NCBI GenBank assembly: GCA_025354605.1
Contig: JANXMN010000469.1
Location: 1-49,690 of the forward strand
Direction: 5' to 3'
DNA: 49,690 bases
Origin: Hymenobacter sp.
GTDB lineage: Bacteria > Bacteroidota > Bacteroidia > Cytophagales > Hymenobacteraceae
In this document: positions 1 to 46,590 of the stretch, one piece after another
Position numbering within the stretch: position 1 is the first letter of the stretch
How the letters are laid out: every line of letters starts with the position of its first letter
Notes under the pieces: model-generated
Database searches by the model: none
What the model was told of the DNA's origin: nothing
Seen by the model: the letters and a program-made list of their open reading frames with translations, nothing else
Translations under genes and position numbers: made by a program

Positions 1-3000
1 CCCGATGACGAAGCCGGCGGCGAGCTGCCCGCCCTCGAAGCCTATTCCAGCGCCCACCCGCCCGCCCCGCCCACCGAAGCCGAGCGCCGGGCCCAGCTCA
101 CCGACAACCGGCTCCAGACCGCCGAAACGCGGGTGCGCCTCGAAACCCGCCTGCTGAACACCTTCTACACGGCCCGCACCAGCCTCGAGGAAACCGGCGT
201 CAACATCCTCTACCTGGCCCTGGGCCGGCTGAGCTGGTACGAAGCCGAGAGCAGCGCCGAGCCCCGGCACGCCCCGCTGGTGCTGGTGCCCGTGGCCCTG
301 GAGCGCGGCCCCGGCCCCGAGCGGTTCAAGCTTGCCTACACCGGGGCCGAGGTCGAGGGCAACCTCAGCCTGCAAGCCCGCCTCAAGGCTGATTTCGGCA
401 TCGCCCTGCCCCTGCCCGACTTCGACGAGCAGCCGCTGGCCGCCTACCTGGCCGCCGTGCGCGCCGCCGTGGCCAGCCAGCCGCGCTGGGCCGTGGAAGC
501 TGACTGCATTACGCTGGGCTTCTTCTCCTTCAGCAAGCTGCTGCTGTACCGCGACCTCGACCCGGCCCAGTGGCCCGCCACGGCCGAGGGCGCGTCGGGG
601 CTGCTGGCACACCCGGCTATCGGGGCGCTGCTGGGCAATGCAACCGGCTTTCCGGATGCTGCCCCCAGCGTGGGCGAAGGTGCTTTTCTCGACACCGAAA
701 GCCCGGCCGCCGACCTGCATCAGGTGCTCGATGCCGACTCGTCGCAGCTGCTGGCGCTGCTGGCCGTGCAGGAGGGCCGCAACCTGGTGGTGCAGGGGCC
801 GCCGGGCACGGGCAAGTCCCAAACCATTGCCAACCTGCTGGCCGAGGCCATCGGAGCGGGCAAAAAGGTGCTGTTCGTAGCCGAGAAAATGGCGGCCCTC
901 GAAGTAGTGAAGCGCCGCCTCGACGCCCTGGGCCTGGGCGCGGCCTGCCTGGAGCTGCACAGCCACAAGGCCAACAAAAAAGCCGTGCTGGCCGACCTGC
1001 GCCACACCCTGGCCCTGGGCCGCCCCACCCCCGCTCCCGCCGCGGCCGACCAGGCGCAGCAGCTCCCCGCCTACCGCCAGGCCCTGAACGACTACGCCCA
1101 CGCCGTGAATGCGCCCCTGGCCCGCAGCCGCCGCACGGCCCAGCAAGTGGCCGGCGAGCTGCTGCGCCTGCGCGCAGAAACCGGCCCACTGGTGCTGCCC
1201 CGCCTGCCCTTCGCCGACCTGCCCACCTGGACCGATGCCGACGCCGCCCACGCCGAAGCCCTGGCCAACCGCCTGCAGGCCACCCTGCAAAAAACCGGCG
1301 TGCCGCAACACCTGCTCTTCCGGGGCAGCGAGCTGACCGTGCTGCTGCCCCCGGAGCAGGCCGCGCTGCCCACGCTGCTTGAAGAAGCCCAGGCCGCCGT
1401 GGCGCGGCTGCAGGCCACCGCCGAAGCCCTGGCCCGTCCCTTCAGCCTGCCCGTGCCAGCTGACCGCGCCGCCGCTGAGGCCCTGCTGCCCGCCGTGCGC
1501 CACGCCGCGCTGGCCCCACCCCTGCCCACCCTCGCCGTGGCCGGCCCCTGGGCCGCCGAGGCTGGCCGGATTGACGAAGCGCTGCGGGCCGGCCCGGCCT
1601 GGCTGGCCTTGCGCCAGCGCTTCGATGGCCTGCTGCTGCCCGATGCCTGGGAAGCCCGCATGCTACCCGAGCGCGCCACTTTGCTGGCCGTCGGCGACAA
1701 GTGGTGGAAGCTGCTCAGCGGCGAATACCGCCGCGCCCGCCTGCGCCTGCAAAGCCTGTGGCGCACCCCGCTGCCCGCCGACAACGCCCCGCTGGTGGCC
1801 GCCATCGAAGCCATCCACGAAGCCACCCGCCTGGCCCGCGCCATTGCCGAGGCGGGGCCCCAGCTGGCCCCACTTTTCGGCTCCGGCTGGCAGGGCCTGC
1901 GCTCCGACTGGCCCACCGTGCGCCGCCAGGCCGACTACCTCGTTCTTACCCACCAACGCATTGCCCGCCACGAGCTGCCGCCCGAGCTGCTGGAGCATCT
2001 GCAACGGCTGGCCACTGGCAGGGGCAGCCTTCCAATAGCAGATAATGAGCATTCGGTACCTGGCGAGCGGCTGGCTCCTCTTGCCGCCGGAGAGGGGCCG
2101 GGGGTGGGGGCTCTCGAAAACGCCCTGGCCCGGCACCGCGCCGCGCTGCAGGCGCTTGTTGAAGCGCTGCACCTCAACGAAGCCCGCCGCTTCGGCTCCG
2201 AGGGACGGTTGCAGTTTCAGCCCTTCATCGCGCAGCAGGCCACGCTGGCGGCCTGGCGGGCCGGCCTGGACGCCCTGGCCGCCACCATCGAATGGAACAA
2301 CGCGGCGGCCGCAACCCGGGCCGGGCACCGTCCCGAGCTGCTGCCCCTGGCCGAAAGCTGGCCTGAAGCGGCCCGGCACCTGGCAGCGGCCGTGCGCCAG
2401 ACCTGGCTGGAATTCCTGCAAAAAACCGCCTTCGACACGTATCTCGCCCTGCGCCGCTTCGAGCGGTCCGGGCACGAGGAGCTGGCCGCCCACTTCCGCC
2501 GCGCCGACCAGGCTGCCCTGCTGCACCACCGCGTCCGGGCCATGCAGCGGCACTACGAGCAGCTGCCCAACCCGCAGGCGCCGGGGCAGCTGTTGATAAT
2601 CAAAAGAGAGCTGGCCAAGAAGGCCCGCCACCTCCCGCTGCGCCGGCTGATGCAGGAGGCTGGGCGGGCCGTGCAGGCCATCAAGCCGGTGTTTATGATG
2701 TCGCCGCTGTCGGTGGCCGCCTACCTGCCGCCGGGAGCGGTGGAGTTCGATTTGGTGGTGTTTGATGAGGCCAGCCAGGTGCGGCCCGTGGAGGCGTTGG
2801 GAGCCATTGCGCGCGGCCGCCAGCTGGTAGTGGTCGGCGACTCGCAGCAGCTGCCGCCCACCAGCTTCTTCGACGCGCTACTCAGCCCCGACGAGGCCGA
2901 CGACGACAGCGTGACCGCTGATATCCCGAGCATTCTGGAGCTGTGCCGCGCCCGCCAGATGCCCGAGCGCCAGCTGCGCTGGCACTACCGCTCGCGCCAC

Positions 3001-4800
3001 GAGTCGCTGATTGCGCCCTCCAACCACCTGTTCTACGACGACCGGCTGGTGGTTTTCCCCAGTCCCGGCGCGGCGGGCCAGCTGGGCCTGCACTACCACC
3101 ACCTGCCCGAAGCGTACTACGAGCGCGGCAGCACCCGCACCAACCCCGCCGAAGCGGCCGCCGTGGCCGAGGCCGTGCTGCACCACGCCCGCCATAGCCC
3201 GCAGCGCACGCTGGGCGTGGTGGCCTTCAGCATGGCGCAGCGCGAAGCCATCGAGGAAGCACTGGAAATGCGTCGCCGGCAGCACCCCGAAACAGAGGTG
3301 TTTTTCAACCGCCACCCGCACGAGCCTTTCTTCATCAAGAACCTCGAAAACGTGCAGGGCGACGAGCGCGACGTTGTTTTCATCAGCCTGGGCTACGGCC
3401 GCACCCGCGAAGGCTCCCTCGCCATGAGCTTCGGCCCGCTGAACGGCGACGGAGGCGAGCGCCGCCTCAACGTGCTCATTACCCGCGCCCGGCAGCGCTG
3501 CGAGGTCTTCACCAACCTCACCGCCGACGACCTTGACCTGAGCCGCACCACATCCAAAGGCGTCGCTGCTCTCAAAGCCTTCCTCAAATACGCCCAACAC
3601 GGCCGCCGGCACCAGAGCGCCGACCCCGCCCGCCCGGCCGACTCACCGTTCGAGGAAGCGGTGTTCGGGGCGCTTACGGCGCGGGGCTACCAGCTGCGCC
3701 CGCAGGTGGGCAGCCCGGGCTTTTATCTTGATTTGGCGGTGATTGACCCTGAGCAGCCCGGCCGCTACGTGCTGGGCATCGAGTGCGACGGGGCCATGTA
3801 CCACGCCGCCCGCTCGGCCCGCGACCGCGACCGCCTGCGCCAGCAGGTGCTCGAAGCCGTGGGCTGGCGCCTGCACCGCATCTGGAGCACCGACTGGTTC
3901 CGCGACCCGGCCGCCGAAACCGACCGCGCCGTGGCCGCCATCGAAGCCGCTATTGCCGCCACCCGCCGCCACCCCGCCCGCTCCGAATCAGCCGAATCGG
4001 GAACTCTGGCGGATGCTTTTAACAACTCTGCCGCTGCTGAAGTGCGGGCCGCTGGCGCAACCCAAACAAGCCAGGCTGCTGGCCCCAGCCAGCCCGGCAG
4101 GCCAAGCCCAGAAGCGCCGAACCGGCCCGCTGTTCAAATAGCGCAATCTGCTGAAACCGATGAATCTGCTGCTGCTGCCGCAACGACAGAACCTGCTGGT
4201 GGCACCACTCCCGGCCTGCCCCGCGAGCCGGCCGCGGCCGCCCGCCCCATTGCCGTGCCCTACCAGCTGGCCCAGCTGCCGCGCAGCATCACGCAGAAGG
4301 CCCTGCACCAGCACCCTACCGGCCGCCTGGCCGCCTGGGTGGCCGAGGTGGTGGCCGTGGAAAGCCCCGTGCACGCCGATGAAGTAACCCGCCGCCTGGC
4401 CCTGGCCGCCGGGGCCACGCAGGTGGGCGCGCGCATCCGCGCCAGCGTGGTGGCGGCCATCCGGCTGGCCGGGCAACAGGGCAGCATCCGCCTGCAAGGC
4501 GACTTCCTCTGGACCCCGGTGATGCCCGCCACCGCCGCCCCAGTGCGCGACCGCAGCCAGTTGCCCAGCGCCTCGCGCCGCCTCGCCTTGGTAGCCCCCG
4601 AAGAGCTGGCCGCAGCCGTGCGCGCCGTGGTGCGCGACAGTTTCTCGCTGCCCCGCGAGGCCATTCTGCTACCGGCCGGCCGCCTGCTGGGTTTCGCCCG
4701 CCCCGGCGACGAGCAGCGCCTGCTGCTGGCCGCTACCGTGGCACGCCTACTGAGCGCAGGGGTGCTAAAGGAGCTGAACGGCGCAATCATGCTGGCTTGA
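1..4800 (+). CDS. DUF4011 / SF1 helicase / nuclease-domain / DUF3320 protein (5' end cut off)
   Basis: The reading frame is open from base 1, so the start lies upstream; the GTG at 133 is internal. In order: a DUF4011-like N-terminal region (about 190-330, ILYLALG then WYE and APLVLVPV), helicase motif I GPPGTGKS (about 797-820), a long helical insert, a DEAD-like box FDEASQ with GDSQQLPPT (about 2760-2860), helicase motifs near the end of domain 2 including QGDERDVVFIS and LNVLITRARQR (about 3355-3500), a Vsr/MTES_1575-like nuclease fold with IECDGAMYH (about 3775-3900), a variable Ala/Pro-rich linker, and a DUF3320-like C-terminus (about 4255-4510). The family is predicted to couple ATP-driven nucleic-acid translocation to cleavage. 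A role in defence or repair is inference. The RAYT gene follows closely. A repeat-derived stretch is inserted in frame near 2012-2115. Confidence 0.88.
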   Translation, partial: PDDEAGGELPALEAYSSAHPPAPPTEAERRAQLTDNRLQTAETRVRLETRLLNTFYTARTSLEETGVNILYLALGRLSWYEAESSAEPRHAPLVLVPVALERGPGPERFKLAYTGAEVEGNLSLQARLKADFGIALPLPDFDEQPLAAYLAAVRAAVASQPRWAVEADCITLGFFSFSKLLLYRDLDPAQWPATAEGASGLLAHPAIGALLGNATGFPDAAPSVGEGAFLDTESPAADLHQVLDADSSQLLALLAVQEGRNLVVQGPPGTGKSQTIANLLAEAIGAGKKVLFVAEKMAALEVVKRRLDALGLGAACLELHSHKANKKAVLADLRHTLALGRPTPAPAAADQAQQLPAYRQALNDYAHAVNAPLARSRRTAQQVAGELLRLRAETGPLVLPRLPFADLPTWTDADAAHAEALANRLQATLQKTGVPQHLLFRGSELTVLLPPEQAALPTLLEEAQAAVARLQATAEALARPFSLPVPADRAAAEALLPAVRHAALAPPLPTLAVAGPWAAEAGRIDEALRAGPAWLALRQRFDGLLLPDAWEARMLPERATLLAVGDKWWKLLSGEYRRARLRLQSLWRTPLPADNAPLVAAIEAIHEATRLARAIAEAGPQLAPLFGSGWQGLRSDWPTVRRQADYLVLTHQRIARHELPPELLEHLQRLATGRGSLPIADNEHSVPGERLAPLAAGEGPGVGALENALARHRAALQALVEALHLNEARRFGSEGRLQFQPFIAQQATLAAWRAGLDALAATIEWNNAAAATRAGHRPELLPLAESWPEAARHLAAAVRQTWLEFLQKTAFDTYLALRRFERSGHEELAAHFRRADQAALLHHRVRAMQRHYEQLPNPQAPGQLLIIKRELAKKARHLPLRRLMQEAGRAVQAIKPVFMMSPLSVAAYLPPGAVEFDLVVFDEASQVRPVEALGAIARGRQLVVVGDSQQLPPTSFFDALLSPDEADDDSVTADIPSILELCRARQMPERQLRWHYRSRHESLIAPSNHLFYDDRLVVFPSPGAAGQLGLHYHHLPEAYYERGSTRTNPAEAAAVAEAVLHHARHSPQRTLGVVAFSMAQREAIEEALEMRRRQHPETEVFFNRHPHEPFFIKNLENVQGDERDVVFISLGYGRTREGSLAMSFGPLNGDGGERRLNVLITRARQRCEVFTNLTADDLDLSRTTSKGVAALKAFLKYAQHGRRHQSADPARPADSPFEEAVFGALTARGYQLRPQVGSPGFYLDLAVIDPEQPGRYVLGIECDGAMYHAARSARDRDRLRQQVLEAVGWRLHRIWSTDWFRDPAAETDRAVAAIEAAIAATRRHPARSESAESGTLADAFNNSAAAEVRAAGATQTSQAAGPSQPGRPSPEAPNRPAVQIAQSAETDESAAAAATTEPAGGTTPGLPREPAAAARPIAVPYQLAQLPRSITQKALHQHPTGRLAAWVAEVVAVESPVHADEVTRRLALAAGATQVGARIRASVVAAIRLAGQQGSIRLQGDFLWTPVMPATAAPVRDRSQLPSASRRLALVAPEELAAAVRAVVRDSFSLPREAILLPAGRLLGFARPGDEQRLLLAATVARLLSAGVLKELNGAIMLA
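2012..2115 (+). repeat. Repeat-like in-frame insertion inside the helicase gene
   Basis: Between two helical stretches the protein changes to a low-complexity segment containing LAPLAAGEGPGVG. The DNA carries a short palindrome, cctcttgccgccggagagg, followed by a G-rich run, ggggccgggggtggggg. This resembles a dispersed repeat (ctctcc..ggagagg plus a G-rich tail) that I remember from intergenic DNA of many Bacteroidota. The frame stays open across it. Boundaries are approximate. Confidence 0.45.
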
Positions 4801-4876: not shown

Positions 4877-5419
4877 GTGATTAGCCTGATTACTTTCCGC
4901 CTGCACGGCACCATCCCCGCTGCCACCGGCCGCGAGCTGAAGGCCGAATTACGCCGCGCCCAGGAAGCCGGCACCGAGCACCGTCGCGCCCAGAAACAGT
5001 TTTTCGCCCGCTTCGATGCCGTGCTCGACCGCGCCCCCATCGGCCCGCAATATCTCGAAAACGAGAAAATGGCCGAGGTAGTCGCCGGCGAAATCTCCAT
5101 GCTGGAAGAAACCGGCTTCATCGTCCGCGGCTTCGCGATTCTGCCCAACCACGCCCACCTCGTGCTGGAGCTGCCCGACGACAGCCGCCTGTCATTCGCC
5201 AAAGCCATCGACCTGCTGCACCTGCGCACCGGCACCACCTGCCGCCGCCTGGTGCGCCCCAAGCTCCCACCCGAGGCGGAGTTCTGGCAAGTCGGCTGGT
5301 TCGAATACGAAGTGCAGGATGAGGCCGAGCTGGCCCGGCTGCTGGCCTACGTGCGCGGCAATGCTCGCGCCGCCGGGTTGCCAGCGCGCTTCCAGGAGTG
5401 GCCCTACGTGGATGATTGA
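4877..5419 (+). CDS. RAYT-like (REP-associated tyrosine transposase), HUH nuclease family
   Basis: About 180 residues, the usual size for small Y1/RAYT proteins. Hallmarks: a start-proximal FRLHGTIP strand, the HUH motif in LPNHAHLVLELP (5141-5176; histidines at 5150 and 5156), then FWQVGWFEYEV and LLAYVRGNARAAGL ending in EWPY. The last part corresponds to the family's WQ..y..h.IR and YI..NPvkAGLv..W.ypS pattern, so the Tyr at 5348-5350 is the likely nucleophile. The usual NP is replaced by NA. GTG 4877 is chosen because conserved sequence begins there; the frame extends back to a TTG at 4808. Known RAYTs cut and join REP hairpins in single-stranded DNA. A 100-bp palindrome begins 43 bp downstream. 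No flanking insertion-sequence ends were seen, as expected for a domesticated RAYT. Confidence 0.78.
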   Translation: MISLITFRLHGTIPAATGRELKAELRRAQEAGTEHRRAQKQFFARFDAVLDRAPIGPQYLENEKMAEVVAGEISMLEETGFIVRGFAILPNHAHLVLELPDDSRLSFAKAIDLLHLRTGTTCRRLVRPKLPPEAEFWQVGWFEYEVQDEAELARLLAYVRGNARAAGLPARFQEWPYVDD

Positions 5420-5462
5420 ATGGGTGAGTGAGTGAATAAGCAGACGAAACCCACGGCGCATC

Positions 5463-5562
5463 TGTCAGCCTGAGCTTGCGAAGGACCTTAGCACGTTCGC
5501 GCCGTTTAGATTACCGCGAACTGTTCTTCGGTCATTAGGTCCTTCGCAAGCTCAGGCTGACA
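5463..5562. repeat. Long palindrome, 26-bp perfect arms, beside the RAYT gene
   Basis: Arms 5463-5488 (tgtcagcctgagcttgcgaa...) and 5537-5562 are exact reverse complements over 26 bp. The loop holds a second 7-bp stem, gttcgcg/cgcgaac (5494-5500 and 5515-5521). It lies between the RAYT and LpxR genes. Its end resembles the GTCATGCTGAGC ends of palindromes elsewhere in the window. Confidence 0.9.
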
Positions 5563-6602: not shown

Positions 6603-6709
6603 CGCTTCGCTTAATGAAGAATGAAGAATGAGGAATTAGAAGTTGGGCTGATTCGCCAGTAACAATTCCTCATTCCTCATTCTTCATTCCTCATTAAGCC
6701 GAAGGCGTC
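6601..6709. repeat. Inverted repeat built on attcctc/attcttc heptamers between convergent genes
   Basis: The left arm (6601-6637) contains aatgaagaatgaagaatgag; the right arm (6664-6709) contains attcctcattcctcattc and its flank. Complementarity extends into the flanks (gacgcttcgcttaatga against tcattaagccgaaggcgtc). The right arm has about four 7-bp units. It fills the whole space between the two stop codons and could act as a two-way terminator. The same heptamer occurs inside metH. Confidence 0.8.
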
Positions 6710-9179: not shown

Positions 9180-9185
9180 TCCGCC

Positions 9186-9393
9186 TGTCATTGCGAGTGG
9201 AGCGCAGCGGAACGCGGCAATCCTTCCTCTCTCAGCGACTAACCTAATAATGTGACAAGCCTTTATTAACAGAAAGTCCCGACCCTGAGATAGGGTCGGG
9301 ACTTTCCGGTCTTAGATAATTTCCACATCTCAAGGGCTTTCCGCATTGAGAGGAAGGATTGCCACGTTGCGCTGCGCTCCACTCGCAATGACA
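9186..9393. repeat. 208-bp inverted repeat with 46-bp arms, enclosing a terminator
   Basis: Left arm 9186-9231 (tgtcattgcgagtggagcgc...) and right arm 9348-9393 are reverse complements over 46 bp with two mismatches. The TGTCATTGCGAG end is typical of a dispersed repeat I recall from many genomes. It sits between convergent hemA and the molybdoenzyme gene, and its loop contains the perfect 14-bp terminator hairpin at 9273-9305. Confidence 0.9.
9273..9305. terminator. Two-way intrinsic terminator between hemA and the molybdoenzyme gene
   Basis: Perfect 14-bp stem aaagtcccgaccct / agggtcgggacttt with loop gagat. A-run and T-run flanks allow function on both strands, fitting the convergent genes. 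Confidence 0.75.
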
Positions 9394-9401
9394 GACAGTC
9401 C

Positions 9402-11987
<2,586 letters not shown>

Positions 11988-12127
11988 TTCTAATTATGCG
12001 TTTTGAATTATAAATTATGAGTGTGGTAGGCGGAATGCGCTGTTCAGGCTGAAGTAGAAGGACTGAGCGATGGGGGGACCAGTGTGGTATTCCCAATTCA
12101 TAACTCGTAATTCCTAACTCATAATTA
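11988..12127. repeat. AT-rich imperfect inverted repeat before the molybdoenzyme gene
   Basis: aattataaattatgag-type sequence at 11991-12021 is partly reverse complementary to 12095-12127 (ctcgtaattcctaactcataatt). It begins four bases upstream of the molybdoenzyme ATG and fills most of the gap to the DUF7009 gene. It is similar in style to the AT-rich elements before moaE, moaC and moeA. Confidence 0.65.
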
Positions 12128-12132
12128 GAAAG

Positions 12133-18677: not shown

Positions 18678-18705
18678 GGTTTTGGCAGGTGAATGAAGGT
18701 GAAAC

Positions 18706-18833
18706 AGAACGTCATGCTGAGCTTGTCGAAGCATCTCGCGTGCCACCACTAACCAATGAGGTAACAACGATTGAGATTAGTGCAGCACGCGAGATGCTTC
18801 GGCTACGCGGACGCCAGATGAGCATGACGTTCT
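18706..18833. repeat. Dispersed palindrome, GTCATGCTGAGC class (copy 1)
   Basis: Left end agaacgtcatgctgagcttg (18706 onward) continues into cgaagcatctcgcgtgc. The right arm 18785-18833 begins gcacgcgagatgcttcggct and ends agcatgacgttct. The right arm has about 11 extra bases (containing gacgccagatg), so pairing is interrupted. It fills the gap between the receptor and AEC genes. Confidence 0.88.
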
Positions 18834-18860
18834 GCTAGTTCCATTTCACCCGCCCAATCC

Positions 18861-19769: not shown

Positions 19770-19786
19770 ATGCGTGAAGAAATGAA

Positions 19787-19931
19787 TAAAAAGAACGTCA
19801 TGCCGAGCGCAGCGCAGCGAAGCCGATGTATCTCGCTTGCCGCCGCTAATCCTTTTGTTTGCGATTGAATCACTACCCCACGCGAGATGCCTCGGCTCCG
19901 CTATGCTGCGCTCGGCATGACGTTCTTTTTA
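19787..19931. repeat. Dispersed palindrome, GTCATGCCGAGC class (copy 2)
   Basis: Left arm 19787-19836 (taaaaagaacgtcatgccga...) pairs with right arm 19882-19931 (gcgagatgcctcggctccgc... ending gacgttcttttta), with small internal differences. The A-run and T-run ends would make an RNA of it look like an intrinsic terminator on either strand. Confidence 0.88.
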
Positions 19932-19992
19932 TTTCCCTTTTCCCTCCCTCCTACCGCCACCTCCTCCTACCTCAACAACCGCTCCTCTCGCC

Positions 19993-21306: not shown

Positions 21307-21336
21307 TAGTTTGTCTTGAGCAGCAAGCGCCGTAGC

Positions 21337-21482
21337 CCGCAGCCTTTGCTGCGGCCCACCGCGCCGATACCCTGAGCTACTTCCGACGCGGGCCGCAGCC
21401 TTTGCTGCGGCCCACCGCGCCGATACCCGGAAATGAAATACCGCTCGGCACTGGCCGCAGCAAAGGCGGCGGCCCACCGCGC
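21337..21482 (+). repeat. Two identical 36-bp direct repeats plus a diverged third copy
   Basis: 21337-21372 and 21393-21428 are identical (ccgcagcctttgctgcggcc...gataccc); each contains the hairpin ccgcagc/gctgcgg. A third copy at 21455-21482 shares ccgcagc and gcggcccaccgcgc, but its 7-base centre is aaaggcg instead of ctttgct. The tract fills the dctA-to-molybdate-carrier gap and reaches almost to the next start codon. Confidence 0.88.
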
Positions 21483-25240: not shown

Positions 25241-25347
25241 AGAACGTCATGCTGAACGCAGTGAAGCATCTCTACCTCAATACTAACCCAAATGTTAGGA
25301 TTACTTGCGCGGTAGAGATGCTTCGACTTCGCTCAGCATGACGTCCT
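25241..25347. repeat. Dispersed palindrome, GTCATGCTGAGC class (copy 3)
   Basis: Left arm 25241-25276 (agaacgtcatgctgaacgca...) pairs with right arm 25311-25347 (ggtagagatgcttcgacttc...) with a few mismatches. The loop contains a second short stem, taaccc-aaatgtta. It lies between the cupin gene and the end of the MFS gene. Confidence 0.87.
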
Positions 25348-32056: not shown

Positions 32057-32062
32057 TTCTTC

Positions 32063-32169
32063 AATGACCAATGAACAATTATCAATGAGCAACTAACCCT
32101 AGTCGCCTCATTAGTAATTGCTCATTGGTAATTGTTCATTGTTAATTGGTAATTGTTAATTGTTAATTG
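32063..32169. repeat. AT-rich inverted repeat between moaD and moaE
   Basis: Left arm 32063-32093 (aatgaccaatgaacaattat...) pairs with right arm 32117-32147 with about four mismatches. After it come further units of gttaattg up to the moaE ATG at 32170, so repeat sequence occupies the normal ribosome-binding position. Confidence 0.8.
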
Positions 32170-40567: not shown

Positions 40568-40655
40568 CGTGGACTCTGCGAGTCCGCGCGTGAACGACGC
40601 CGCCCCGAATCTATCGACTACTAACGCCTCTACGCGCGGACTCGCAGAGTCCACG
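40568..40655. repeat. 24-bp perfect inverted repeat between metH and metF
   Basis: Arms 40568-40591 (cgtggactctgcgagtccgc...) and 40632-40655 are exact reverse complements over 24 bp; each arm is itself a small hairpin (ggact/agtcc). The right arm ends 8 bp before the metF ATG and so lies over the ribosome-binding position. Confidence 0.9.
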
Positions 40656-46323: not shown

Positions 46324-46425
46324 CATGCCGAGCGTAGCTGAGGCATCTCGCGGGGGGAAGTAATGAACGTTGTCGAACGATTGAATTACTTCTGCACGCG
46401 AGCTGCCTCGGCTACGCTCGGCATG
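46324..46425. repeat. Dispersed palindrome, CATGCCGAGC class (copy 4)
   Basis: Left arm 46324-46352 pairs with right arm 46397-46425 over 29 bp with two mismatches; an inner stem gaagtaat/attacttc continues the pairing. The right end reads gcatgacgttctttttt, as in copy 2. It lies downstream of the SDR gene and may end its transcript. The rest of the 298-bp gap holds nothing recognised. Confidence 0.88.
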
Positions 46426-46590
46426 ACGTTCTTTTTTCGGGTCTTTTCCTATGGCCCGGGCTTAGCTATAGCTGATTAGCAAAGTTTTGGGCAACGGCTT
46501 AGTCAATCTGAAAAAAAGCCCGTTACCTTTCCACTCGCGGTTTTTGCCAGGCAGCGGCACTCCACTCATCTCAATTCCCACTCCTCGTTT

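What the first reader, a model, noticed from the sequence alone, without database searches (positions are those of the whole stretch)
4877..5562. RAYT transposase beside a long palindrome in a palindrome-rich region
Sequence shows an HUH/Y1 RAYT-like gene with a 26-bp perfect palindrome 43 bp downstream. RAYTs are known to move REP hairpins in other bacteria, usually from beside their own gene. Here the ends of the adjacent palindrome (tgtcagcctgagcttg) resemble the ends of several other palindromes in the window. That this protein spreads those elements in a Hymenobacter-like genome is inference, but it would be a larger-stem REP-like system than the short enterobacterial REPs.
Basis: partly seen in the sequence, partly recalled or inferred. 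Interest (0 to 1): 0.68.

Follow-up and report, generated by a model that had tools for sequence, protein, structure and literature searches.

The report
Altered transposase linked to CGTC-tagged repeats
A single-copy transposase-like gene in Hymenobacter has lost residues that its relatives use to read the usual REP tag, and genomes that keep the gene tend to carry nearly twice as many copies of a different, CGTC-tagged repeat family for which no mover is known.

Summary
The gene and palindrome are real and correctly placed, but two readings change. (1) The palindrome is a head-to-head pair of short TGTC-tagged repeats of the CGTC REP superfamily described in 2013, said to "apparently lack a dedicated transposase"; it is not a larger-stem REP. 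(2) Adjacency is weak evidence. The gene is a fixed syntenic locus, and a CGTC repeat follows it in 11 of 52 cases against 72 of 671 other genes.

The stronger evidence is comparative. In 73 genomes on an rpoB-rpoC tree, CGTC copy number is about 1.8-fold higher where this gene is intact (PGLS p=4.9e-6). A 30-40% paralogue (p=0.91) and a patchy neighbour gene (p=0.89) show no such link; the paralogue instead predicts GTAG repeats. The window-type proteins keep the HUH and Tyr residues but not the His and Arg that contact the GTAG tag, except one orthologue that has the Arg.

Against: GTAG repeats are also higher in paired comparisons, gene-less genomes still hold 70-373 CGTC units, and nothing is experimental. 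Best reading: a re-specified RAYT-like enzyme that spreads or maintains CGTC repeats (about 0.5).

The parts
4877..5419 (+). RAYT-related Y1 (HUH) transposase-like gene, GTG start, 180 aa; H92-A-H94, catalytic-type Y158, N-terminal T6
   Evidence: residues conserved in all 63 distinct orthologous sequences examined; AlphaFold model mean pLDDT 76.6, best solved-structure match 4er8 (E. coli TnpA_REP bound to a REP hairpin), Z 9.5, rmsd 3.0, 120 residues aligned
5463..5562 (.). Head-to-head pair of TGTC-tagged CGTC-superfamily REP units, arms 5463-5488 and 5537-5562 (26 bp, 100% complementary, 48 nt apart)
   Evidence: 18 units of this type in the genome, two of them these
9185..9394 (.). Head-to-head pair of TGTC-tagged repeats with ATTGC stem, 47-nt arms
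18705..18834 (.). CGTC-tagged pair (CGTCATGCTGAGC ... partner arm with CGTCATGCTCATC)
19785..19933 (.). CGTC-tagged pair with GTCATGCCGAGC ends, 55-nt arms
25241..25347 (.). CGTC-tagged pair (GTCATGCTGAAC / GTCATGCTGAGC)
46324..46427 (.). CGTC-superfamily pair, right arm with GTCATGCCGAGC, left arm lacking the GT of the tag

Best explanation
The gene encodes an active-looking HUH/Y1 transposase that descends from the RAYT stock. In the ancestor shared by Hymenobacter and a sister genus it became a fixed single-copy gene, kept the catalytic HUH and Tyr, and changed the surface that in E. coli TnpA_REP reads the GTAG tag. It now acts, in trans, on short hairpin repeats with an unpaired CGTC or TGTC tag, cutting and re-joining single-stranded copies and so helping to spread or maintain head-to-head pairs across the genome. 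Shown here: the family, conserved catalytic residues, loss of tag-contact residues, membership of the repeats in the CGTC superfamily, and a phylogenetically controlled link between intact gene and repeat number. Inferred: binding, cleavage and movement.
For: (a) Copy number: log count of YGTCATNCNGAGC sites against intact gene (48 of 73 genomes intact, 4 broken, 21 without) on an rpoB-rpoC tree: b=0.57, p=4.9e-6; with paralogue in the model p=1.2e-5 and the paralogue p=0.91; with paralogue and GTAG count p=1.3e-4. The second CGTC class (TGTCATTGCGAG) also tracks the gene, p=0.0046, and not the paralogue, p=0.40. Controls: neighbour gene LpxR p=0.89; 0 of 5000 Brownian simulations and 0 of 3000 random patchy traits reach the observed t. 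Independent pairs: higher in 14 of 18, median 1.84-fold, p=0.0028. (b) Dissociation: GTAG repeat count tracks the paralogue (p=3.6e-4; 17 of 22 pairs); with CGTC count in the model the window gene has no effect on GTAG (p=0.58). (c) Residues: E. coli W94, Q95, E100, H101, R104 are listed as GTAG contacts (PMC6006769 section 14); mapped through the 4er8 alignment, the H101 position is L/Y/V in 63 of 63 distinct orthologues and R104 is not R in 63 of 63, while paralogues keep H in 40 of 40 and R in 39 of 40. (d) Repeats: base before GTC is C 95, T 46, G 8, A 2 in 151 units, and inner stem positions covary (144 of 151 Watson-Crick, 65 expected; 135 of 151, 91 expected).
Against: GTAG repeats are also more numerous where this gene is intact in the paired test (14 of 18, 2.07-fold, p=0.003) and weakly in PGLS (p=0.03), which fits a shared background cause. 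Genomes without the gene still hold 70-373 CGTC units, and two family members of a third genus hold 42 and 109 with no hit to this protein. Dimer fraction does not fall without the gene (p=0.15), against a simple decay prediction. Adjacency is near background. The gene is not bracketed by REPs as RAYT genes are. One orthologue (L032) has R at the R104 position. Single units fold weakly as DNA. No biochemical data.
Confidence: 0.5

Rival explanations
1. Shared background: some lineages tolerate or purge small repeats in general. They lose this gene and repeats of all kinds together, and CGTC repeats are moved by another enzyme.
For: In independent pairs GTAG repeats are also higher with the intact gene (14 of 18, p=0.003); CGTC and GTAG counts correlate (Spearman 0.32) and each remains a predictor of the other; CGTC repeats persist without the gene and are published from organisms of other phyla (PMC3733652).
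Against: The paralogue, equally patchy (35 of 73 genomes), predicts GTAG and not CGTC; LpxR predicts neither; the window gene's effect on GTAG vanishes once CGTC count is included, whereas its effect on CGTC survives inclusion of GTAG.
Confidence: 0.3
2. The protein is a domesticated nuclease with a non-REP role; the downstream gap is simply a good site for hairpins (terminators or REP landing spots), and the copy-number link is secondary.
For: The locus is syntenic (cluster of same neighbours in 40 and 41 of 52 loci) and different species carry quite different palindromes, or none, just after the gene: CGTC pairs, GTAG-type hairpins (L071, L074, L079, L080) and simple AT-rich palindromes. Orientation-matched counts are near background for convergent gaps. 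RAYT-type classes without REPs exist (subclasses 2.1 and 2.3; PMC6006769 passages).
Against: It gives no reason for the phylogenetically controlled link with CGTC count or for the full conservation of HUH and Tyr beside loss of tag-contact residues.
Confidence: 0.2

Closest known systems
RAYT / TnpA_REP (for example E. coli TnpA_REP, PDB 4er8)
   Same: HUH and Tyr catalytic residues, N-terminal Thr, fold (best VIA match 4er8, Z 9.5), single copy, REP-rich genome
   Different: NP(L/V)(R/K)xG motif absent; positions equal to H101 and (all but one sequence) R104 replaced; not bracketed by two REPs; co-varies in copy number with CGTC rather than GTAG repeats
GTAG-flanked RAYT paralogue in the same genomes (28-40% identity)
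   Same: Same fold family and catalytic residues
   Different: Paralogue keeps D-H-x-x-R and NP motif; 20 of 40 have a GTAGCGCG-type hairpin within 400 bp (one of these by a loose filter), 13 of 40 on both sides, and 1 of 40 a CGTC match
CGTC REP superfamily (Di Nocera, De Gregorio, Rocco 2013, PMC3733652)
   Same: CGTC/TGTC tag, AT at the stem base, covarying short stem, short tail, mostly head-to-head pairs
   Different: Published as apparently lacking a dedicated transposase; here a candidate is proposed for one clade. Window's own unit has AG instead of AT at the stem base
TnpA_Y1 subclass 2.6 (Bacteroidetes; PMC6006769)
   Same: Bacteroidetes, about 180 aa, no GTAG consensus in its flanks, tag-contact region not conserved
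   Different: Published Y motif YIH[QN]NP and median HUH-Y distance 82; here YVRGNA or YLxxHP types and 66. Member sequences could not be compared (supplements not readable here)

Membership tests
RAYT | HUH motif and catalytic Tyr | tested here: met
   H92, H94, Y158 in 63 of 63 distinct orthologues
RAYT | Conserved N-terminal Thr (PMC2817692 passages) | tested here: met
   T6 in 63 of 63
RAYT | NP(L/V)(R/K)xG motif after the Tyr (PMC2817692 passages) | tested here: not met
   Window has NARAAG; N162 N in 25 of 63 and P at 163 in 23 of 63; alignment
[quoted passage not shown]
   CGTC match within 400 bp in 14 of 52 named or window loci, mostly one pair on the downstream side
RAYT | Curated family score | tested here: not met
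   NF047646 51.8 bits, cut-off 80; PF01797 18 bits, cut-off 23
GTAG-reading TnpA_REP | Residues equivalent to E. coli H101 and R104 | tested here: not met
   0 of 63 and 0 of 63; L032, outside that set, has R at the second site
CGTC REP superfamily | Unpaired CGTC or TGTC tag | tested here: met
   C 95, T 46, G 8, A 2 before GTC in 151 units; CGTC+TGTC 84 against AGTC+GGTC 8 noncoding AT-stem units; window unit has TGTC
CGTC REP superfamily | AT at first two stem positions and covarying short stem | tested here: met
   Family level: (144 of 151 and 135 of 151 Watson-Crick). Window's own unit: AG, and alone it folds no better than shuffles, so a drifted copy
CGTC REP superfamily | Head-to-head dimers predominant | tested here: met
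   Median about 0.6 of units in dimers by pattern
IS200/IS605 insertion sequence | Multiple near-identical mobile copies | tested here: not met
   One orthologue per genome at 50% identity or more in the listing; conserved neighbourhood
TnpA_Y1 subclass 2.6 | Y motif YIH[QN]NP and median HUH-Y spacing 82 | tested here: not met
   YVRGNA, spacing 66; published values

The most novel reading that the evidence does not exclude
This is the first candidate for a dedicated enzyme of a CGTC-tagged REP family: a RAYT lineage that switched its tag from GTAG to CGTC/TGTC by replacing the contact residues, while a GTAG-reading paralogue lives on in many of the same genomes.
Probability: 0.38. Interest if true: 0.75.

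Novelty: new variant of a known kind. Interest (0 to 1): 0.58.

Why it matters
CGTC-tagged repeats occur in at least five phyla and were left without a known transposase in 2013 (PMC3733652). A paralogue pair in one genus, one keeping GTAG contacts and flanks and the other not, would make the question testable and would show how the tag specificity of REP transposases can change. My searches for a later link between RAYTs and CGTC repeats listed none; they cover open-licence PMC papers only, and the main RAYT survey (PMC5581495) was not held.

Tried and rejected
Larger-stem REP: rejected, the long stem is two REP units folded together.

Adjacency as proof: rejected. CGTC within 150 bp downstream 11 of 52 against 72 of 671 (p=0.038), upstream 2 of 52 against 49 of 671; by gap type. 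Genes were called by my own ORF script, not a trained gene finder.

Decay of dimers to singles in gene-less genomes: not seen (p=0.15).

General RAYT number as driver: NF047646 match count predicts CGTC count alone (p=6.6e-4), but those counts include the window-type gene; in the joint model the window gene has p=0.0006, NF count 0.037, paralogue 0.18. Genera g3, g4 and g6 mostly have several NF047646 matches and mostly 0-5 CGTC sites, with exceptions up to 48.

Wider search: 33 of 241 genomes of the order match profile A1 at E 1e-8 or better; I examined 16 of the matches outside the family, and these have D at the E100 position 16 of 16, H, R or N at H101, and R or K at R104, with NP in 16 of 16. 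A separate set of 16 top NF047646 matches differs at these sites too; I did not study its repeats.

A tree of 141 sequences places all 69 window-type rows in one clade, support 0.77, so the root side is not firm. Structure search rows for Thg1-like proteins score as high as IS608 ones; I take the match to 4er8 together with the sequence evidence. G000 is not in the regression because rpoB was not found. The intact, broken and absent labels, and the paralogue label, are mine, set by hand from the list.

Full report
What is there. A 180-aa open frame at 4877-5419 (+) is followed after 43 bp by a 100-nt palindrome with perfect 26-bp arms. The protein matches the REP transposase model NF047646 at E 7.9e-14, below its curated cut-off, and Y1_Tnp weakly. 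An AlphaFold model from 21 orthologues (mean pLDDT 76.6) aligns best with E. coli TnpA_REP bound to a REP hairpin, 4er8, Z 9.5, rmsd 3.0, 120 residues; Thg1-like structures score about as high, so the sequence evidence carries the assignment.

What the palindrome is. It is two copies of TGTCAGCCTGAGCTTGCGAAGGACCT head to head. Variants of this unit are abundant: 382 YGTCATNCNGAGC sites in the window's genome against 5 reversed controls. In the loci examined, 151 units show C or T before GTC in 141, AT at the stem base and covarying inner stem positions: 144 of 151 Watson-Crick where 65 would be expected from independent columns, and 135 of 151 where 91 would. These are the marks of the CGTC REP superfamily of PMC3733652 (I saw parts 1 and 2 of the text and passages), including change of the tag to TGTC, AT at the stem base, tails and head-to-head dimers. 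That paper reports CGTC repeats in Bacteroidetes and says that they apparently lack a dedicated transposase. The window's own unit has AG in place of AT and does not fold alone.

The gene family. A protein search matched 59 of 150 genomes of the family at E 1e-6 or better, in 2 of 6 genera. Two groups appear: orthologues at 50% identity or more, and paralogues at about 28-40%. A profile scan of public genomes gave 52 loci, 51 of them Hymenobacter or Hymenobacteraceae and one Opitutales at 28%. The orthologue sits in a conserved neighbourhood: same downstream neighbour cluster in 41 and same upstream cluster in 40 of 52 loci. What follows the gene differs by species: CGTC pairs, GTAG-type hairpins, simple AT-rich palindromes, or nothing. 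CGTC units lie within 150 bp downstream in 11 of 52, against 72 of 671 other genes. With gap orientation matched it is 6 of 21 against 19 of 89 for convergent gaps and 5 of 15 against 31 of 282 for tandem gaps. So adjacency alone says little.

Tag-contact residues. PMC6006769 (section 14) lists W94, Q95, E100, H101 and R104 as GTAG contacts in E. coli; PMC8266576 passages name Q95, D100 and R104 as relatively conserved across two groups. Through the 4er8 alignment, W94 and mostly Q95 are kept here, E100 is mostly E or D, H101 is L, Y or V in 63 of 63 distinct sequences and R104 is not R in 63 of 63. One further orthologue, L032, does have R. In the paralogues the same sites read D 40 of 40, H 40 of 40 and R 39 of 40. 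The catalytic residues are kept in both groups (one paralogue has P at the first His). In 16 matches outside the family, contact residues and the NP motif are mostly canonical.

Flanks of the paralogue. By script, 20 of 40 have a GTAGCGCG-type hairpin within 400 bp (L248 by a loose filter), 13 on both sides, and 1 a CGTC match. Among 52 window-type loci, 14 have a CGTC match and 1 (L080) GTAGCGCG hairpins on both sides; among 20 further fetched orthologues, some from the same genomes, 5 and 0.

Copy number. On an rpoB-rpoC tree of 76 genomes, 73 genomes of the two genera with the gene were used: 48 intact, 4 broken, 21 without. In the main genus the median count of CGTC sites is 387 with (41 genomes) and 171 without (20); broken ones have 499, 135, 326 and 107. 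The paralogue has no effect on CGTC (p=0.91) but predicts GTAG (p=3.6e-4), for which the window gene has p=0.03. With each repeat class as covariate the window gene keeps its effect on CGTC (p=1.3e-4) and loses that on GTAG (p=0.58). LpxR, a patchy neighbour, has p=0.89; 0 of 5000 Brownian simulations and 0 of 3000 random traits reach the observed t. In 18 independent pairs CGTC is higher in 14 (1.84-fold, p=0.0028), but GTAG is also higher in 14 (2.07-fold, p=0.003); for the paralogue it is 10 of 22 for CGTC and 17 of 22 for GTAG. The nearest-neighbour comparison gives lower counts in 19 of 25 genomes without an intact gene. Dimer fraction does not differ (p=0.15).

Reading. The dissociation between two related transposases and two repeat classes, and the matching change at the contact residues, favour direct action of the window-type protein on CGTC repeats. 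The paired GTAG result, the many CGTC units in gene-less genomes and the absence of any experiment keep this near even odds. It cannot be the mover of CGTC repeats in general, since it was found almost only in Hymenobacter and one sister genus, whereas CGTC repeats are published from five phyla. By the published criteria it is RAYT-related but fails two defining features (NP motif, bracketing REPs), so I do not file it as a RAYT proper.

Noticed in passing
window 6609-6699, 11987-12131, 32062-32148; also after the gene in L046, L052, L054, L056: Palindromes built of near-simple AT-rich words (such as AATGAAGAATGAGGAATT) recur in gaps of several Hymenobacter species; no family or mover is known to me.
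   Followed up: no
window 21327-21482 and 40568-40655: G+C-rich inverted repeats; the first includes GTAG followed by a hairpin, so GTAG-type REPs may be present beside the CGTC ones.
   Followed up: no
L214-L250 (paralogue loci): Textbook GTAG-flanked RAYT genes in Hymenobacter, with GTAGCGCG hairpins on both sides in 13 of 40.
   Followed up: partly
L044, L082 and genomes G041, G134, G074, G118: Broken or partial copies of the window-type gene, showing repeated loss.
   Followed up: partly
window 133-4800: Large helicase-nuclease-like protein with DUF4011, AAA and MTES_1575 domains, just upstream of the gene.
   Followed up: no
G080 locus L080: The one window-type orthologue with GTAGCGCG hairpins on both sides, and not in the usual neighbourhood.
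   Followed up: no
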